From: Actinoplanes liguriensis
Lineage (GTDB): Bacteria > Actinomycetota > Actinomycetes > Mycobacteriales > Micromonosporaceae
NCBI GenBank assembly: GCA_000715855.1
Contig: KL571233.1
Coordinates: 1,904-13,161 of the forward strand
Direction: 5' to 3'
Length of the DNA stretch: 11,258 nt
Numbering within the stretch: position 1 is the stretch's first letter; every line of letters begins with the position of its first letter. Of this stretch, positions 926 through 11,258 are shown one piece after another. The position numbers were made by a program, and so were the translations under genes. The notes beneath the pieces are model-generated. The model was given only the letters and a program-made list of their open reading frames with translations. It ran no database searches and was not told where the DNA came from.

Positions 926-1855
926 GTGCTCGCCGTACTCTCGCCCGGCCAGGGCTCCCAGAAGCCCGGCTTCCTGACCCCCTGGCTCGAACTCGCCGGT
1001 GCCCGTGACCGCCTGACCGCCTGGTCGGCGCTCGCCGGCGTCGATCTGGTGCACCTCGGCACCGACGCGGACGCCGAGGAGATCAAGGACACCGCCCGCA
1101 CCCAGCCGCTGCTGGTCGCCGCCGCTCTGCTGGCCGCCGCGCAGCTCCCGCTGGAGCGGGCCGGCGTGATCGCCGGCCACAGCGTCGGTGAGCTGGGCGC
1201 CGCCGCGGCCCCCGGGGTGCTGACCCCGGAGGACGCGATCACCCTGGCCGGGGTCCGTGGCCGGGAGATGGCCGCCGCCTGCGCGCTCGAGCCGACCGGG
1301 ATGTCGGCCGTGCTCGGCGGCGACCCGGACGAGGTGATCGCCACGATCGAGAAGCACGGGCTGCACGCGGCCAACCGCAACGGTGCCGGCCAGATCGTCG
1401 CGGCCGGCGCGGTGGACGCGCTCGCCGAGTTCAAGGCGGCCCCACCGGCCAAGGCCCGGGTCATCCCGCTGGCGGTGGCCGGGGCCTTCCACACGCCGTA
1501 CATGGCGCCCGCGGAGACCGCGCTCGCCGTTGTCGCGAAGAACACAGCCGTCACCGACCCGGCCCGGACGCTGTTGTCGAACCTGGACGGCACGGCGGTG
1601 GCGAGCGGGCGCGAGATGCTCGACCGCCTGGTCCGCCAGATCACCGCCGGCGTCCGGTGGGACCTGTGCATGGGAACGCTCAAGGACCTCGGTGTCACCG
1701 CGGTCATCGAGCTGCCCCCGGCCGGCACGCTGGCCGGCCTGGTCAAGCGGGAGTTGAAGGGCGACGGAGCTCCGGAGATCGTCACCCTGAACACACCGGA
1801 CGACCTGCCCGCCGCGCGCGATCTGATCGCCCGGCACGCCACGCCACAGCACTGA
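926..1855 (+). CDS. fabD: Malonyl-CoA:ACP transacylase FabD
   Basis: It moves malonate from CoA to the acyl carrier protein, supplying the extender unit of type II fatty acid synthesis in the cytoplasm. The 309 residues match the family length. The N-terminal PGQGSQ (7-12) is the family signature and oxyanion region. GHSVGELG (84-91) carries the nucleophile Ser86. Arg111 in VRGREM binds the malonyl carboxylate. His189 in GAFHTPYM is the catalytic base. The start is a GTG at 926, because homology begins at once (MLAVLSPGQGSQ); GGAAG at 911-915 is a weak Shine-Dalgarno ten bases upstream. It is the first gene after the 213-base regulatory gap and is followed 30 bases later by fabH. Confidence 0.97.
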   Translation: MLAVLSPGQGSQKPGFLTPWLELAGARDRLTAWSALAGVDLVHLGTDADAEEIKDTARTQPLLVAAALLAAAQLPLERAGVIAGHSVGELGAAAAPGVLTPEDAITLAGVRGREMAAACALEPTGMSAVLGGDPDEVIATIEKHGLHAANRNGAGQIVAAGAVDALAEFKAAPPAKARVIPLAVAGAFHTPYMAPAETALAVVAKNTAVTDPARTLLSNLDGTAVASGREMLDRLVRQITAGVRWDLCMGTLKDLGVTAVIELPPAGTLAGLVKRELKGDGAPEIVTLNTPDDLPAARDLIARHATPQH

Positions 1856-1885: not shown

Positions 1886-2836
1886 ATGGTTGCGGGTTCC
1901 CGCATCGTCGCGATGGGTCACTACCAGCCCTCGCGTGTGGTCACCAACGAGGATCTGACCAAGACTCTGGACACGAACGACGAGTGGATCCGGAGCCGGG
2001 TCGGCATCGCGGAGCGGCGCATCGCCGACACCGAGACGGTCGCCGACATGGCCACGTTCGCCGCCGAGAAGGCGCTGGCCGCGTCCGGTCTGAGCGCCGC
2101 CGACATCGACCTGGTGGTGGTCGCGACGTGCTCGTCGATCGACCGCTGCCCGAACGTCGCCACCCGGGTGGCGAACAAGCTGGGCATCACCGCCCCGGCG
2201 GCGTACGACCTGAACACCGCCTGCTCCGGCTTCTCGTACGCGGTCGGCAGCGCGGACCACGCGATCCGCGCCGGCGCCGCCCGCCACGCGATCGTGATCG
2301 GCGCGGAGAAGCTCTCCGACGTCACCGACTGGTCGGACCGCAAGACCGCGGTGCTCTTCGGTGACGGCGCGGGCGCCGCGGTGATGAGCGGTGTGCCGGA
2401 CGGCGAGGAGCCGGGTGTCGGCCCGGTGCTCTGGGGCTCCGCTCCGGACAAGGGCGACGTGCTGCGGATCGAGGGCTGGCGCCCGTACATCGAGCAGGAG
2501 GGCCAGATCGTCTTCCGCTGGGCCACCACCGAGCTCGCCCCGTTCGCGATCGAGGCCTGCCGCCGGGCCGGCGTCAAGCCGTCCGAGCTGGCCGCGTTCG
2601 TGCCGCACCAGGCGAACACCCGGATCATCGACGGCATCGTGAAGCGGCTCGGTCTGAGCGAGACCGCGATCGTCGCGAAGGATCTGGTCGAGTCCGGCAA
2701 CACCTCCGCGGCGAGCGTGCCGCTGGCGCTGTCCAAATTGATCGAGCGGCGCGAGGTGCCCTCCGGGGCGCCGGTGCTCCTGTTCGGCTTCGGTGGTGGC
2801 CTGACCTACGCCGGTCAGGTTGTCCGCTGCCCGTAA
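1886..2836 (+). CDS. fabH: Beta-ketoacyl-ACP synthase III (FabH)
   Basis: It condenses a short acyl-CoA primer with malonyl-ACP to start each fatty acid chain. In actinobacteria the primer is often branched (isobutyryl- or methylbutyryl-CoA), which the sequence alone does not show. The 316 residues are of normal length. The catalytic triad is complete: Cys113 in NTACSGF, His241 in PHQANTRI and Asn272 in SGNTSAAS. DEWIRSRVGI (32-41) near the N-terminus and the C-terminal GFGGGLTYAG are further KAS III signatures. The ATG at 1886 has AAGGAGG five bases upstream, the strongest ribosome binding site in the operon. It lies between fabD (30-base gap) and acpP (46-base gap) and is surely co-transcribed. 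Confidence 0.97.
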   Translation: MVAGSRIVAMGHYQPSRVVTNEDLTKTLDTNDEWIRSRVGIAERRIADTETVADMATFAAEKALAASGLSAADIDLVVVATCSSIDRCPNVATRVANKLGITAPAAYDLNTACSGFSYAVGSADHAIRAGAARHAIVIGAEKLSDVTDWSDRKTAVLFGDGAGAAVMSGVPDGEEPGVGPVLWGSAPDKGDVLRIEGWRPYIEQEGQIVFRWATTELAPFAIEACRRAGVKPSELAAFVPHQANTRIIDGIVKRLGLSETAIVAKDLVESGNTSAASVPLALSKLIERREVPSGAPVLLFGFGGGLTYAGQVVRCP

Positions 2837-2882: not shown

Positions 2883-3125
2883 ATGGCAACTCGTGAAGAG
2901 ATCACCTCTGGCCTCGGCGAGATCCTCGAGGAGGTCGCCGGGGTGAACCCGGACGACGTCGCCGAGGGCAAGTCCTTCACCGACGACCTGGACGTCGACT
3001 CGCTGTCGATGGTCGAGGTCGTGGTGGCGGCCGAGGAGAAGTTCGGGGTCAAGATCCCGGACAACGAGGTCCAGAACCTCAAGACCGTCGGTGACGCCGT
3101 CACCTACATCGAGGCGAACGCCTGA
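2883..3125 (+). CDS. acpP: Acyl carrier protein
   Basis: This is the 80-residue carrier that holds growing acyl chains as thioesters on a 4'-phosphopantetheine arm. The attachment serine is Ser40 in the DVDSLSMVE motif, followed by the acidic recognition helix (EVVVAAEEKFGVKIPD) that partner enzymes bind. The protein is strongly acidic, as the family requires. An A-rich leader precedes it, and the fabF start lies only one base after its TGA, so fabF is probably translationally coupled. The phosphopantetheinyl transferase needed to activate it is not in this window. Confidence 0.98.
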   Translation: MATREEITSGLGEILEEVAGVNPDDVAEGKSFTDDLDVDSLSMVEVVVAAEEKFGVKIPDNEVQNLKTVGDAVTYIEANA

Positions 3126-3126
3126 C

Positions 3127-4353
3127 ATGAGCACTGTCGACGTCGTCGTCACCGGGCTCGGCGCGACGACCCCGCTGGGCGGGGACGTCGCGTCCACTTG
3201 GGACGCCATGCTCGCCGGCCGCTCCGGGGTGAGCTCTCTCACTCAGGAGTGGGCCGGGCAACTGTCCGTCCGCATCGCCGCGCAGATCGCCGTGGATCCC
3301 TCGGAGGTCATCGAGCGGGTCCGGATGCGGCGGCTGGACCGCAGTGAGGCGATGGCCATCGTCGCCGCCAAGCAGGCCTGGGCCGATTCCGGCCTGGAGG
3401 GCACCGGGCTGGACCCGGAGCGTCTCGCGGTCAGCTTCGGCAGCGGCATCGGCGGCGCCATCACCCTGCTCGACCAGGACGACATCCTGGAGAAGTCCGG
3501 TCCGCGGCGGGTCAGCCCGCACACGGTGCCGATGCTCATGCCGAACGGCCCGGCAGCGTACGTCGGGCTCGAGGTCGGCGCCAGGGCCGGGGTCCGGGCC
3601 ATGGCGAGCGCCTGCGCCACCGGCGCCGAGGCGGTCGCCCTGGGTCTCGACCTGATCCGCGCCGGTCGCGCGGACGTGGTGGTGGCCGGCAGCACCGAGG
3701 CCGTGATCCACCCGCTGCCGATCGCCGGCTTCGCCTCGATGCGCGCCATGTCGACGCGCAACGACGATCCGGAGCGGGCGTCCCGTCCGTGGGACAAGAA
3801 CCGGGACGGCTTCGTCCTCGGTGAGGGCGCCGGCGCGCTGATCCTGGAGCGTGCCGACCACGCGGCGGCCCGCGGGGCCACCGTGTACGCCCGTCTGGCC
3901 GGGGCCGGCATCACCTCGGACGGCTACGACATCGTCCAGCCCGACCCGGAGTGCAAGGGCGGCATCCGGGCGATGTCCATGGCGGTGCGCGACGCCGGTC
4001 TGACCGGTGCCGACATCGCGCACGTCAACGCCCACGCGACCTCGACCCCGGCCGGCGACATGGGCGAGGTCCTGGGCATCCGGGCCGCGGTGGGTGGCCA
4101 CCCGGTGATCACGTCGACGAAGTCGATGACCGGGCACCTGCTGGGCGCGGCCGGCGCGCTGGAGTCGATCGCCACCATCCTGGCGATCCGCGACAGCGTG
4201 GTTCCCCCCACGATCAACCTCGACGACCCGGACGAGCGCCTGGATCTCGACGTGGCGGCGTTCAAGGCCCGCCCGCTCGACATCCCGGCGGCCATGAACA
4301 ACTCGTTCGGCTTCGGCGGCCACAACGTGGCTCTGGTCTTCACGCGTCCCTGA
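3127..4353 (+). CDS. fabF: Beta-ketoacyl-ACP synthase II (FabF)
   Basis: It catalyses the elongating condensations of acyl-ACP with malonyl-ACP. The 408 residues include the complete Cys-His-His set: Cys163 in SACATGAEAV, His303 in NAHATSTPAGD and His337 in KSMTGHLLGAAG, with the conserved Lys332. NNSFGFGGHN near the C-terminus is the usual KAS II ending. I place the start at the ATG 3127, one base after the acpP stop, because homology begins at MSTVDVVVTGLG; an upstream in-frame start at 3091 would only add residues read from the acpP reading region. GAGG at 3111-3114 is a weak ribosome binding site, fitting coupling to acpP. Its stop lies 20 bases before a strong hairpin that covers the next gene's start. 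Confidence 0.97.
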   Translation: MSTVDVVVTGLGATTPLGGDVASTWDAMLAGRSGVSSLTQEWAGQLSVRIAAQIAVDPSEVIERVRMRRLDRSEAMAIVAAKQAWADSGLEGTGLDPERLAVSFGSGIGGAITLLDQDDILEKSGPRRVSPHTVPMLMPNGPAAYVGLEVGARAGVRAMASACATGAEAVALGLDLIRAGRADVVVAGSTEAVIHPLPIAGFASMRAMSTRNDDPERASRPWDKNRDGFVLGEGAGALILERADHAAARGATVYARLAGAGITSDGYDIVQPDPECKGGIRAMSMAVRDAGLTGADIAHVNAHATSTPAGDMGEVLGIRAAVGGHPVITSTKSMTGHLLGAAGALESIATILAIRDSVVPPTINLDDPDERLDLDVAAFKARPLDIPAAMNNSFGFGGHNVALVFTRP

Positions 4354-4373
4354 CGCGTCGCAGCCAGGGAAAG

Positions 4374-4419
4374 GAGGAGCCGTGATCCGCGACCCCGGAT
4401 CACGGCTCCTCGCTCTTTT
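4374..4419 (+). promoter_or_regulatory. 16-bp hairpin with T-rich tail enclosing the start of the AccD6-like gene
   Basis: Positions 4374-4389 and 4396-4411 are perfect reverse complements (16 bp, no mismatch) around the 6-base loop CGACCC. They are followed by GCTCTTTTC. The 5' arm contains most of the Shine-Dalgarno (AAGGAGGAG, 4371-4379) and the GTG start (4382-4384). The 3' arm is codons 6-10 of the gene. The shape is that of an intrinsic terminator, yet it overlaps a translation start. A ribosome finishing fabF at 4353 would cover the 5' arm, so coupling or attenuation is plausible. The Ser codon TCA (residue 7), unusual among the TCC/TCG serine codons of this gene, is needed for pairing. 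Confidence 0.75.
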
Positions 4420-5653
4420 CGACCACGACACGATGCGTCCGCTCGCCCCGGCGGACGACTCGGGCGTCCTGCACGCCCGGGGCTCGGTCGACGGCACGCC
4501 CGCGATCGCCTTCGCCACCGACGCCTCCCGGATGGGCGGTGCGATCGGTGTGGCCGGCTGCGGGCGGGTGGTCGAGGCGATCGATCTCGCGATCCGGGAA
4601 CGGGTTCCGGTGATCGGCGTCTGGCATTCCGGCGGGGCGCGCCTCGACGAGGGCGTGGTCGCGCTGGACGCGGCCGGTCAGATCTTCGCCGCCACGGTCC
4701 GGGCGTCCGGCCGGATCCCGCAGGTCTCGGTGCTGGCCGGGCCGACGTCCGGCAGCGCGGCCTACGCGGCGGCGCTCACCGACGTCGTGATCACCGGGGT
4801 GGGCGACTCGCCCCGGGTCGCGCACGTGCTCGCCGACGGCGACGAGGCGGCGCTGGACGCGGCCCGGCGGACGGCGCGGATGCTGGGTCACCCCGGCCGG
4901 CTCTCGCCTGCCGACATCCGGCCCGGCAGCACGCTGGGCCGATCCCTCGACTCACTCTTGCCGGTGGTCACCGATCAGGCTTATGACGTACGGCCATTGC
5001 TCCGTGCCCTTCTCGACGAGAACGGCATGGAGTTGCACGCCCCGTGGGCGCCGAACCTGGTGACCACGCTGGGCCGGTTCGCCGGTCGCACGGTCGGCGT
5101 GGTGGCGAACAACCCGCAGCACCTCGACGGCTGCCTGGACGCGGCCGCCGCCGAGAAGGCCGCCCGGTTCGTCCGCATGTGCGACGCCCTGGCCCTGCCG
5201 CTGATCGTCGTGGTGGACACCCCCGGATACCTCTCCGGGCCGGACGCCGTGGTCCTCGGCGGCGCCCAGTTGCTGCACGCGTTCGCCGAGGCCGTCGTGC
5301 CGAGAGTGACCCTGGTCACCCGTCGCGCGTACGGCGGCGCCTACCTCGCGATGAACTCCCGCGCGCTCGGCGCCTCCGCGGTCTTCGCGTGGCCCGGCAC
5401 CGAGCTCGCGGTGCACGACCCGGCGGCGGCCGTGCCGATCCTGCACCACCGGCGGCTCGCGGCCACCCCGCCCGAGGAACGCGGCGCCCTCCACGAGCGG
5501 CTGGCCCGGGAGGGGGTCGAGACGGCCGGGCGGGCCCTGGAGATCGGCCTGCTCGACGCCGTCGTCACCCCGGACGAGACCCGCCGCCGGATCGCCGAGG
5601 CGCTGGCCGCGGCCCCGCCGGCCCGGGGCGCCCACGGCAACATCCCGCTCTGA
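4382..5653 (+). CDS. accD6: AccD6-like carboxyltransferase subunit, divergent
   Basis: The closest family I recognise is mycobacterial AccD6, the carboxyltransferase beta subunit of acetyl/propionyl-CoA carboxylase, which also follows the fab/kas genes. It would hand carboxyl groups from biotin to acetyl-CoA to make malonyl-CoA. Crotonase-fold features remain: WHSGGARLDEG (81-91), GPTSGSAAY (120-128), DTPGYL (279-284), RRAYGGAYLAMNSR (314-327) and the HGNIPL ending. At 423 residues it is short. About 35-40 residues expected after ALTDVVI (132-138) are missing. The DQE-type acidic motif after PGYL is absent, and the usual MGA after ELAV is replaced by HDP (345-347). Homology from residue 4 supports the GTG start inside the hairpin. 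It may be an inactive or altered paralogue; biotin carboxylase genes are not nearby. Confidence 0.8.
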   Translation: MIRDPGSRLLALFDHDTMRPLAPADDSGVLHARGSVDGTPAIAFATDASRMGGAIGVAGCGRVVEAIDLAIRERVPVIGVWHSGGARLDEGVVALDAAGQIFAATVRASGRIPQVSVLAGPTSGSAAYAAALTDVVITGVGDSPRVAHVLADGDEAALDAARRTARMLGHPGRLSPADIRPGSTLGRSLDSLLPVVTDQAYDVRPLLRALLDENGMELHAPWAPNLVTTLGRFAGRTVGVVANNPQHLDGCLDAAAAEKAARFVRMCDALALPLIVVVDTPGYLSGPDAVVLGGAQLLHAFAEAVVPRVTLVTRRAYGGAYLAMNSRALGASAVFAWPGTELAVHDPAAAVPILHHRRLAATPPEERGALHERLAREGVETAGRALEIGLLDAVVTPDETRRRIAEALAAAPPARGAHGNIPL

Positions 5654-5669: not shown

Positions 5670-7409
5670 CTACTTGACGCAGGCGCTGCGGGGCAGGCCG
5701 GCGACGGCGATCGGTGACCTACCCGGGGCGGCGGCCTTACCCGCGATCACAGCGGAGAGCGCGGTCAGGGACAGCTTGCTCGACGAGTACGTGGCCAGCA
5801 GCGTCGGCGACTTCGCGTAGGCGAGCAGCCCGGGCAGGTCCATCATCACCGTCACGGGCGCGTCCGGGGACAGATCGACCGGCTTGTCGCCGTACCCCAC
5901 CAGGTGGATCTCCGCTCCACCGGCGGCCCGCACCTCGACACCGTCCGCCTGCAGCGCCTTGACCAGGGTGGACCGGGCGAGCTCGCGCGACGGCGGCGCG
6001 GTGACCGTGACCGGCCCGGTGACCAGCGGCCCGGTGCAGCGCCCGCGCAGCACGGTGACCGAGGCCGCGTCCAGCGCGGCGACCGCCTGCTGGTGCGTCT
6101 GCGCGCCGAGCACCGACAGGTCGGGCTGGGCGGTGGCCGCGGTCCGGAACTTCAGCGTCAGGATCCGGGTGACGGCCTCCATCAGCCGCTCCCGCTTCAG
6201 CGTGCCGTTCTTCAGCCCGGCCACGATGCCGTCCCGGGCGGCGCCGATGTCCGGCGGCATGAGCAGCATGTCGTTGCCCGCGTTGAGGGCGCGGACGGCC
6301 GCCTCGCCGGGCGCCCACTTCTTCGCCGGCTCCATGTTCATCGCGTCGGTGATCGCCACCCCGGTGAACTTCAGCTCGCCGCGCAGCACGTCGGTCATCA
6401 GCTTGTGCGAGAAGGTGGCGGCCACGCCCTTGTCGATCGCCTGCAGGTCCAGGTGGCCGGACATCACCACCCCGGCGCCCGCGTCCACGCCGGACCTGAA
6501 CGGCGGCAGATCCTGCGCGCGCCAGGCGGCCGCGGTCTGCTTGATCGCCGGGAGCACCTCGTGGCTGTCCCCGGTGGTGTGCCCGTGGCCCGGGAAGTGC
6601 TTGAGGGCGGCGGAGACCCCGGCGCCCTGCAGCCCACGGACGGCCGCGGCGACCTGCTTGGCGTTGGCGGTCGCGTCCGAGCCGAACGAGCGGGAGCCGA
6701 TCACCGAGCTGCCGGCCGTGCCGAGCGTGTCGGCGACCGGCGCGAAGTCGACCGTGACGCCCATCGCGGCCAGCTCCTCGCCGGCCCCGCGCCACGCCGC
6801 CTCGGTCAGGTCCGGGCGGCCCGCGGCGCCGACCGCGAACGCCGACGGCAGCGCGGTGACCCCGTCGGTGATCCTGGTCACGACGCCGTACTCCTGGTCG
6901 GTGCCGATCATCAGCGGCGCCCCCGCGGGCAGTTGCCGGGCGGCCGCCTGCAGGCCGTCGGTGAGCGCACGGACCTGCTTCGGGTTCTCCACGTTCGACG
7001 TGGGGTTGGTCTTGCCGGTCGGGTCGTTCTGCGTGAACGAGACCAGGATCAGGCCGCCCAGCCGGTACTTGGCGATCATCTGGGCGGGCGTGTCCACCCC
7101 GGCCAGGCTCCGGTTGCCGGCCGCCGACCCGGCGTCGACCTGCGTGGCCGAGCCGCCGTACGCATACGGCATCAGCACCTGGCCGGCCAGGTCCTCGTCG
7201 CTCAGCCTGGCCACCGTCTCGGCCGCCCGCACCACGGGATCACCGGACGGCGCCGACGCCGACTCGGAGACCGGGCCGGATGCCGCGGACGCGACCGGCC
7301 CCGCGTCCGGCGGGGCCGTTGGAGCCTTCGCGTCGTTCCCGCATGCTCCGGCGAGCAGAACCAACGGTGCGACAAATGCGACACGGGACAGCTTTTTCAC
7401 GAACGCCAT
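5670..7409 (-). CDS. Family 3 glycoside hydrolase lipoprotein (NagZ-like beta-N-acetylhexosaminidase)
   Basis: This 579-residue exported protein has a lipoprotein signal (KKLSRVAFVAPLVLLAGAC) with the lipidated Cys23, followed by an Ala/Pro/Ser-rich linker to about residue 58. The family 3 catalytic barrel spans roughly 60-430. KHFPGHGHTTGDSH (270-283) is the NagZ-type loop whose Asp-His pair acts as acid/base, and Asp355 in AITDAMNM is the expected nucleophile. Residues about 440-575 form a second domain like the family 3 C-terminal sandwich. The likely substrate is N-acetylglucosamine in peptidoglycan turnover, acting outside the membrane; other beta-hexosides are possible. The ATG at 7409 has no clear Shine-Dalgarno, and a small GCGGA/TCCGC hairpin (7421-7434) lies just before it. 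It follows the DUF3145 gene by 37 bases, probably on one transcript. Confidence 0.9.
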   Translation of the reverse strand: MAFVKKLSRVAFVAPLVLLAGACGNDAKAPTAPPDAGPVASAASGPVSESASAPSGDPVVRAAETVARLSDEDLAGQVLMPYAYGGSATQVDAGSAAGNRSLAGVDTPAQMIAKYRLGGLILVSFTQNDPTGKTNPTSNVENPKQVRALTDGLQAAARQLPAGAPLMIGTDQEYGVVTRITDGVTALPSAFAVGAAGRPDLTEAAWRGAGEELAAMGVTVDFAPVADTLGTAGSSVIGSRSFGSDATANAKQVAAAVRGLQGAGVSAALKHFPGHGHTTGDSHEVLPAIKQTAAAWRAQDLPPFRSGVDAGAGVVMSGHLDLQAIDKGVAATFSHKLMTDVLRGELKFTGVAITDAMNMEPAKKWAPGEAAVRALNAGNDMLLMPPDIGAARDGIVAGLKNGTLKRERLMEAVTRILTLKFRTAATAQPDLSVLGAQTHQQAVAALDAASVTVLRGRCTGPLVTGPVTVTAPPSRELARSTLVKALQADGVEVRAAGGAEIHLVGYGDKPVDLSPDAPVTVMMDLPGLLAYAKSPTLLATYSSSKLSLTALSAVIAGKAAAPGRSPIAVAGLPRSACVK

Positions 7410-8181: not shown

Positions 8182-8508
8182 GTGGCAGGCAACACCTCAA
8201 AGACCGCCCGCGCATCAGTCCGCGCCGGCCAGGGCACCGGTGGCGCCCTCAGCGTGCTCGGTGAGTACAAATACCTCATCCCGCTCGCCAACGGCCGCTT
8301 CGCGTACGTGCGCAACCTGACCAACGGCAAGACCACGCACCTCAAGACCGACTCGGACGCTTTCGTCGAGGAGATCCGGGTGCTGGCCGGTGCCGGCCAC
8401 GGTGCGAAGATCCGCGCCGAGCTCGTCGCGCTGCACGCCACCAGCCCGGAAGACGGCTGGGACGCCGCCGAGAAGCGTCTCGTCGACGCCGGCGTCTTCG
8501 AGGGCTGA
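8182..8508 (+). CDS. Small conserved-looking protein of unknown function
   Basis: This 108-residue protein starts with GTG at 8182, seven bases after a good ribosome binding site (AAGGAG, 8169-8174), and ends 19 bases before a strong terminator. It is therefore a self-contained single-gene unit. The first 20 residues are basic and Ser/Thr/Gly-rich. Residues 28-55 (EYKYLIPLANGRFAYVRN, then TNGKTTHLKT) look like two or three beta strands. The rest (DAFVEEIRVLAGAG, GAKIRAELVALHA, DGWDAAEKRLVDAGVF) looks like amphipathic helices. There are no cysteines, no signal peptide and no membrane segment. I cannot assign a family; a nucleic-acid or protein-binding adaptor is possible but unsupported. Confidence 0.8.
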   Translation: MAGNTSKTARASVRAGQGTGGALSVLGEYKYLIPLANGRFAYVRNLTNGKTTHLKTDSDAFVEEIRVLAGAGHGAKIRAELVALHATSPEDGWDAAEKRLVDAGVFEG

Positions 8509-8527: not shown

Positions 8528-8573
8528 GAAAAGGCACCTCGCGGCTTCGCCGGGAGGTGCCTTTTCGCTTTTC
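8528..8573 (+). terminator. Strong intrinsic terminator
   Basis: GAAAAGGCACCTC (8528-8540) and GAGGTGCCTTTTC (8554-8566) pair perfectly over 13 bp. An inner CGGC-TTC-GCCG hairpin (8542-8552) extends the stem. T-runs at 8562-8565 and 8569-8572 follow. The A-run at the foot also makes it usable from the minus strand, so it could end transcripts arriving from the carbonic anhydrase side. Confidence 0.92.
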
Positions 8574-11241: not shown

Positions 11242-11258
11242 CTGTCTCTTATACACAT
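11242..11258. other. Tn5/Nextera mosaic-end adapter
   Basis: CTGTCTCTTATACACAT is the first 17 of 19 bases of the reverse-complement Tn5 mosaic end, mirroring the fragment at 1-13. Translated on the minus strand it gives the well-known MCIRDS artefact. Confidence 0.97.

What the first reader, a model, noticed from the sequence alone, without database searches (positions are those of the whole stretch)
4374..4419. Terminator-shaped hairpin that swallows the start codon of the last fab-operon gene
A perfect 16-bp stem with a 6-base loop and a CTCTTTTC tail contains the Shine-Dalgarno, the GTG and the first ten codons of the AccD6-like gene. A terminator has no reason to lie inside a start region unless it regulates: it could stop transcription after fabF, or block translation unless the ribosome ending fabF 20 bases upstream keeps it open. 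This would set the ratio of condensing enzymes to carboxyltransferase. The TCA serine codon needed for pairing suggests selection on the RNA, and homology from residue 4 shows the start is real.
Basis: partly seen in the sequence, partly recalled or inferred. Interest (0 to 1): 0.8.

Follow-up and report, generated by a model that had tools for sequence, protein, structure and literature searches.

The report
Terminator hairpin covering a gene's start
A very strong RNA hairpin that looks like the end signal of a fatty-acid gene cluster sits exactly on the start of the next gene, and close relatives have kept the hairpin after losing that gene, which suggests an end signal that took over a gene's starting point while the gene fades.

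Summary
The hairpin is real: 16 of 16 Watson-Crick pairs, 6-nt loop, U-rich tail, covering most of the Shine-Dalgarno, the GTG and codons 1-10 of the accD6-like gene behind fabF. Comparing what follows fabF in 67 genomes of the genus (nearest named relative Actinoplanes siamensis) explains it. The same stem is found in four related genomes, and its pattern in no other of 354 family genomes. Two of the four keep accD6 (window, G083). G066 keeps only its first 48 codons; G016 has none, and there the stem stands between fabF and a converging gene. All seven inferred stem substitutions keep or restore pairing. Genomes with intact accD6 directly behind fabF mostly lack such a hairpin (4 of 23 have one); genomes without accD6 usually have one (25 of 36). 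Best reading: the fab-operon terminator, lying over the accD6 start, so that accD6 is made only by leakage or fast initiation. The window's AccD6 lacks 36 residues of the canonical enzyme and shows relaxed but still purifying selection. A conserved device setting the enzyme ratio is not supported. There are no RNA data: termination and translational block are inferred.

The parts
926..1855 (+). fabD-like (malonyl-CoA:ACP transacylase)
   Evidence: best NCBIfam family TIGR00128, below its curated cut-off
1886..2836 (+). fabH
   Evidence: TIGR00747 and NF006829 above cut-off
2883..3125 (+). acpP
   Evidence: NF002147 above cut-off
3127..4353 (+). fabF, last gene before the hairpin; stop TGA 4351-4353
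   Evidence: TIGR03150 above cut-off; the same gene found in 67 of 67 genus genomes
4354..4373 (+). 20-nt spacer, including an A-rich stretch and the first base of the SD
   Evidence: sequence
4374..4389 (+). 5' arm of the stem: most of the SD, GTG and codons 2-3
4390..4395 (+). 6-nt loop
4396..4411 (+). 3' arm of the stem: up to and including codon 10
4412..4420 (+). U-rich tail GCTCTTTTC (5 T in the first 8 bases)
4382..5653 (+). accD6-like acyl-CoA carboxyltransferase gene whose start is buried; lacks the segment matching residues 153-188 of M. tuberculosis AccD6
5670..7409 (-). converging beta-N-acetylhexosaminidase-like gene; in G016 its stop directly follows the hairpin
   Evidence: (best family below cut-off)

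Best explanation
The hairpin is the transcription terminator of the fabD-fabH-acpP-fabF operon in a small clade, and it lies on top of the start of the next gene. Shown by sequence: one stem per genome in four related genomes, with changes that keep pairing, and kept where accD6 is truncated (G066) or gone (G016). Inferred: RNA polymerase mostly stops here, or the hairpin fixes the 3' end of fabF mRNA. In transcripts that read through, the same stem hides the SD and GTG, so accD6 is held down twice. Leakage happens when the 5' arm is occupied before the 3' arm is made; a ribosome finishing fabF, or initiating on accD6, would then act as antiterminator. The window looks like an intermediate stage: accD6 still an open frame, shortened in its catalytic half, under relaxed but purifying selection.
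For: Same stem, one place each, in 4 of 354 family genomes: G000, G083, G066, G016 (exact pattern). They form a clade, supports 0.99, 0.97, 1.00, in a tree of 30 of the 67 genus genomes. G066: only codons 1-48 of accD6 match, stem kept; G016: no accD6 match, stem between fabF and the converging gene. All 60 cells of the 15 outer pairs are paired in the four; 7 inferred substitutions, 0 of 600,000 random simulations as good. One ancestral A-G mismatch (pair 11/46) repaired in three different ways. Stability -31.2 to -37.9 kcal/mol, 3-5 T in the first 8 tail bases. Strong hairpin behind fabF in 25 of 36 genomes without accD6 against 4 of 23 with it intact, Fisher 1.4e-4 without correction for ancestry. 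Start opening energy 33.2 kcal/mol, but about 8-11 until base 4400 is transcribed and 32.2 at 4411. accD6 dN/dS window-G083 0.278, window branch 0.38.
Against: No RNA data. Four sequences only; the formal covariation count is not significant (98 of 500 shuffles reach the number of two-sided pairs, 22 of 500 the score), and adding G080 and G023 removes what signal there was. G066's loss could be recent, so its stem may be a relic. The simulation rests on an ancestor inferred by hand and ignores coding constraint. G016's tail is poor in U (3 of 8). 11 of 36 genomes without accD6 lack a strong uninterrupted hairpin there, and 4 of 6 broken cases too, so a hairpin is not required for losing accD6.
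Confidence: 0.68

Rival explanations
1. A regulatory attenuator maintained for accD6's sake: termination and start block, relieved by ribosomes finishing fabF, set the ratio of condensing enzymes to carboxyltransferase.
For: accD6 in the window and G083 is still under purifying selection although the stem predates their split. Spacers of 20 and 10 nt fall in the range where E. coli ribosomes repress terminators. A separate lineage, G085, has its own 16-bp stem burying the accD6 start.
Against: 19 of 23 genomes with intact accD6 lack a strong hairpin at or before the start. The stem is kept without the gene in G016. Spacer not conserved: 10 to 77 nt. No alternative antiterminator pairing longer than 6 nt to either arm within about 200 nt on either side. 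No Rfam match in the window.
Confidence: 0.13
2. A 3'-end stabiliser rather than a terminator: transcription ends further on (Rho or processing) and the hairpin only protects the fabF mRNA from 3'-5' decay; accD6 is blocked as a side effect.
For: In Streptomyces clavuligerus highly structured, U-poor 3' ends may be of this kind (PMC8269248, passages); G016's tail has 3 U in 8.
Against: Window and G066 tails have 5 U in 8 with an A-rich stretch upstream, the pattern of intrinsic terminators. The two readings differ only in how the 3' end is made.
Confidence: 0.1
3. A neutral perfect palindrome, made by template switching on an imperfect one at the accD6 start, with no function; accD6 is simply dying.
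For: Outgroups G080 and G023 have partly complementary arms, the differences from G080 cluster at mismatched positions, and accD6 is absent or broken in 42 of 67 genomes.
Against: Later changes in all four lineages keep or restore pairing, also in G016 where nothing is coded. Template switching may explain the origin but not the upkeep.
Confidence: 0.06
4. The annotated start is wrong and translation begins at the downstream ATG (4433), outside the stem.
For: ATG at codon 18 is shared by G000, G066, G083 and G080.
Against: No SD by eye and no sigma-70-type promoter-like site (other promoter types not covered). Codons 3-14 encode the RDPxxRLxxxFD stretch conserved in AccD6 proteins. The codon is CTG in G023.
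Confidence: 0.03

Closest known systems
Intrinsic (Rho-independent) terminators of high-GC actinobacteria (PMC8269248 and PMC12207403, passages read)
   Same: Long GC-rich stem, short loop, 3-5 U in the first 8 tail bases, A-rich stretch upstream, just behind an operon's last essential gene
   Different: Its 5' arm is the ribosome binding site and start codon of a following gene with an intact frame
pT181 repC attenuator with an RBS inside the terminator hairpin (PMC5435934, passages read)
   Same: One hairpin can both terminate transcription and hide the ribosome binding site
   Different: pT181 has the RBS in the 3' half, an antiterminator and an antisense RNA, in a 5' leader; here RBS, start and first codons make up the stem, between two genes of an operon, with no antiterminator found
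Bifunctional terminator/RBS-sequestering attenuators proposed by Naville and Gautheret 2010 (PMC2965389, section 17 read)
   Same: The predicted double control of transcription and translation by one hairpin
   Different: They had only candidates in leaders; here the element is within an operon and persists after the gene is lost
Ribosome-repressed terminators near stop codons (tR2 constructs, pyrBI; PMC4824070, abstract and passages read)
   Same: Short stop-to-stem distance, 20 nt in the window
   Different: Distance is not conserved here (10-77 nt) and the effect was measured in E. coli only

Membership tests
Intrinsic terminator (high-GC type) | Stable GC-rich stem with short loop (S. clavuligerus highly structured class: below -23 kcal/mol) | tested here: met
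   -37.8 kcal/mol, 16 bp, 6-nt loop; class limit from PMC8269248
Intrinsic terminator (high-GC type) | U-rich tail (3 or more U in 8 nt after the stem) | tested here: met
   5 of 8 in the window; 5, 4 and 3 in G066, G083 and G016
Intrinsic terminator (high-GC type) | RNA 3' ends at the site and little read-through | not testable with these tools
   no RNA data
pT181-type dual attenuator | Terminator stem contains the ribosome binding site | tested here: met
   SD and GTG in the stem; start opening energy 33.2 kcal/mol
pT181-type dual attenuator | Competing antiterminator structure | tested here: not met
   longest exact complement to either arm is 6 nt in 4150-4373 and 4412-4650; longer-range or imperfect pairing not tested
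pT181-type dual attenuator | Antisense RNA controlling the switch | not tested
   no search for antisense promoters beyond the sigma-70-type scan, which found none
Translational-coupling hairpin | Stem includes the end of the upstream reading frame, so that translation melts it | tested here: not met
   stem begins 20 nt after the fabF stop
Ribosome-repressed terminator near a stop codon | Stop-to-stem distance under about 27-30 nt | tested here: met
   20 nt in the window, 10 in G083, 22 in G016; 77 in G066; threshold from E. coli
Known RNA family (riboswitch, T-box, leader) | Match at Rfam gathering score | tested here: not met
   0 matches in the window
Canonical AccD6 carboxyltransferase | Match to M. 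tuberculosis AccD6 without loss of catalytic-domain segments | tested here: not met
   matched stretches 16-152 and 189-473 of 4fb8; 36 residues between are missing (relatives)

The most novel reading that the evidence does not exclude
A start-codon region has been turned into an operon terminator: the 5' arm of the terminator is the ribosome binding site and start of accD6, so initiation on accD6 is itself the antiterminator, and transcription of the gene depends on its own translation beginning before the 3' arm appears. The arrangement shuts a dispensable gene down in steps, and the terminator outlives the gene, as in G066 and G016.
Probability: 0.3. Interest if true: 0.75.

Novelty: new variant of a known kind. 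Interest (0 to 1): 0.55.

Why it matters
How operons shorten and where new terminators come from is seldom caught in the act. Here one small clade and its neighbours show the stages side by side: gene pair without hairpin, gene with a hairpin over its start, a 48-codon stump with the hairpin, and the hairpin alone at the operon's end. It would also be a natural, intra-operonic case of one hairpin controlling both termination and initiation, and a single reporter series could test it.

Tried and rejected
Ratio-setting device for fatty-acid synthesis: rejected as the main reading (see rivals).

Dispersed repeat or mobile palindrome: rejected. The exact stem pattern is found at one place per genome in 4 of 354 genomes, and the 201-base junction has no second copy of the hairpin in the genome (the other two matches are a fabF-end paralogue and the palindrome itself).

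Assembly artefact: rejected. The same stem is in three other genomes, although this assembly carries adapter sequence elsewhere.

First impression that accD6 is rare in the genus (9 of 67 at E <= 1e-118; 10 of 354): wrong, because the missing segment splits the matches. Corrected by reading what follows fabF in all 67.

Formal covariation: too few sequences. Plasmid collection searched with the junction: 6 records, matching the fabF end only.

Structure prediction of the window's AccD6 (pLDDT 80.8, pTM 0.80) gives a confident fold despite the missing segment; no fold search was run on it.

The first alignment of the four hairpins used wrong coordinates and was discarded. A first table of start accessibility without the fabF tail was replaced.

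Limits of the counts: 'intact', 'broken', 'spacer' and 'absent' were assigned by hand from tblastn results. 'Absent' means no tblastn match at E <= 0.01 in the roughly 1.5-1.6 kb behind fabF; at least G007, G079 and G082 show traces by eye. The hairpin score limit of 28 leaves out G064 (27.8); the scan allows loops of 3-12 and no bulges. The tree uses 30 of 67 genomes.

Full report
What is there. The fab operon of the window runs fabD, fabH, acpP, fabF (the fabD call is below its family's curated cut-off). Twenty nucleotides behind the fabF stop begins a perfect 16-bp stem (4374-4389 with 4396-4411) with a 6-nt loop and the tail GCTCTTTTC. The stem holds most of the SD, the GTG (4382) and codons 1-10 of an accD6-like gene. 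It folds at -37.8 kcal/mol, z -6.7. The start is the most upstream one its frame allows, and the RDPxxRLxxxFD stretch it encodes is conserved in AccD6 proteins. In a 405-kb sample of the same genome it is the longest of 9 perfect stems of 13 bp or more and the only one spanning a predicted start (crude gene calls). Opening its start costs 33.2 kcal/mol, more than any of 163 sampled SD-bearing starts (maximum 26.5).

Who it belongs to. The nearest named relative is Actinoplanes siamensis (AccD6 79%, FabF 97%); G083 gives the identical junction. I read what follows fabF in all 67 genomes of the genus that are held. accD6 follows directly and intact in 23, after a long spacer in 2 (intact as far as the fetched DNA reaches), broken or a trace in 6, and absent in 36 (hand-assigned classes). 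A strong uninterrupted hairpin at or before the accD6 start, or within 100 nt where no start was assigned, is found in 4 of 23, 1 of 2, 2 of 6 and 25 of 36 respectively. Fisher's test for absent against intact gives 1.4e-4, with no correction for ancestry. The four intact cases are the window, G083, G080 and G023. They lie together on a tree of 30 of the 67 genomes, with weak support for the nodes joining G080 and G023 (0.17 and 0.55). In G080 and G023 the strong hairpin lies in the spacer, not on the start.

The same stem without the gene. The exact stem pattern is found in 4 of 354 family genomes, one place each: the window, G083, G066 and G016. They form a clade (G083,(G016,(G000,G066))) with supports 0.99, 0.97 and 1.00. 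G066 matches accD6 in codons 1-48 only. G016 has no accD6 match; the stem lies between fabF and the end of the converging hexosaminidase-like gene. So the hairpin does not need accD6.

Pairing under selection. Over the 15 outer pairs all 60 cells are paired in the four; the innermost pair of the window is not kept. Taking G080 as outgroup, pair 11/46 was an A-G mismatch in the ancestor. It has been repaired in three ways: G to U in the 3' arm (G000 and G066), A to U (G083) and A to C (G016) in the 5' arm. In G016 the outermost pair went from G-C to A-U. Of seven inferred substitutions none leaves a broken pair; 0 of 600,000 random simulations matched this (ancestor inferred by hand, coding constraint ignored). 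The formal covariation counts on four rows are weak: two pairs changed on both sides, reached by 98 of 500 shuffles; score reached by 22 of 500. G080 and G023 do not have the full stem (84% of cells paired over six rows). In the window the 3' arm and tail use codons rare in the sample: GGA, TCA, GCT, CTT.

State of accD6. The window's protein lacks the residues matching 153-188 of M. tuberculosis AccD6. Of the 32 alignment columns of this segment the window, G083 and G080 keep 3, G010, G035 and G073 keep 8, and G023 keeps 20 but without the motif; eight canonical genomes (G005, G008, G018, G022, G024, G030, G031, G068) and G081 carry it unchanged. dN/dS is 0.278 between the window and G083, against 0.10-0.23 for six pairs of segment-keeping genomes. 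By branch, the window gives 0.38 and G083 0.23, against 0.04-0.20 for seven segment-keeping branches. G080, which also lacks the segment, gives 0.16, so relaxation is not uniform. Selection is relaxed in the window but far from neutral. If the stem is of single origin, as the tree suggests, it predates the window-G083 split, so the gene must have been translated to some degree with the stem in place.

How it probably works (inferred). Polymerase leaving fabF meets the terminator. Until about base 4400 is transcribed the SD and start are open (opening cost 8-11 kcal/mol); once the 3' arm is complete at 4411 they are shut (32.2). A ribosome or 30S subunit that occupies the 5' arm before then would prevent both termination and occlusion. 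In E. coli a terminator 17-18 nt behind a stop had efficiencies of about 0.12 to 0.8 depending on sequence, and about 0.9 beyond 30 nt (PMC4824070, passages). The spacers here are 20 and 10 nt where accD6 survives, 22 and 77 nt where it does not, so spacing alone does not explain retention. No antiterminator pairing longer than 6 nt was found nearby.

A separate case. G085 (FabF 88%), which keeps the canonical AccD6 segment, has its own 16-bp stem burying the accD6 GTG with a long loop (z -4.2; opening 25.7 kcal/mol). It is not terminator-shaped. This speaks for start burial recurring in accD6, and is the best point in favour of a regulatory reading.

Known kinds. The S. clavuligerus definition of highly structured U-rich 3' ends (PMC8269248, passages) is met by the sequence. 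A terminator that also hides an RBS was proposed in 2010 as not yet demonstrated (PMC2965389, section 17), and double control was shown with translational fusions of the pT181 attenuator (PMC5435934, passages). Seven literature searches (listings of at most 15 papers each, several of longer lists) showed no title or abstract opening on an intra-operonic terminator built from a start codon and outliving the gene, nor on this junction; the library holds open-licence papers only.

Verdict. Observation confirmed. The terminator reading is favoured; the ratio-setting purpose is not. The window is best seen as an intermediate in the removal of accD6 from the fab operon, with the terminator lying over its start.

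Noticed in passing
window 11242-11258; L147 from base 246: The window ends in a Nextera/Tn5 adapter-like stretch (identified from memory) followed by a run of N in the contig; 11 of 20 sampled stretches of this genome (L148-L167) also hold the 19-base adapter word or its complement. The assembly is adapter-contaminated at gaps.
   Followed up: partly
window 4382-5653; also G083, G080, G010, G035, G073, G023: AccD6-like proteins of this clade lack most of the FVTGPEVVRSVTGEQVDMERLGGPEPHGRRSG segment and change GGAAYGPA, yet stay under purifying selection and give a confident predicted fold: a shortened enzyme or a reused relic.
   Followed up: partly
L109:1405-1500 (G085): Separate 16-bp stem burying the accD6 GTG, with the same TCA CGG CTG CTG codon run on the 3' arm and a long loop that itself folds.
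   Followed up: partly
L085:2721-2840 (G080) and L086 (G023): Strong hairpins (17 and 10 bp) in the spacer between fabF and accD6, upstream of the SD, in the nearest relatives outside the four-genome clade.
   Followed up: partly
L081 (G066), first 77 nt after fabF: The spacer contains near-repeats of the fabF 3' end and early spacer, which move the terminator from about 20 to 77 nt behind the stop.
   Followed up: no
fabF-downstream region of the 67 genus genomes: accD6 is intact directly behind fabF in 23 of 67, present after a spacer in 2, broken in 6 and absent in 36: repeated loss within one genus, with assorted terminators in its place.
   Followed up: partly
window 8528-8566: Second strong inverted repeat (18 nt, 94% complementary, 3-nt gap) with T-rich ends on both strands, behind an ORF ending at 8508: an ordinary terminator candidate.
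   Followed up: no
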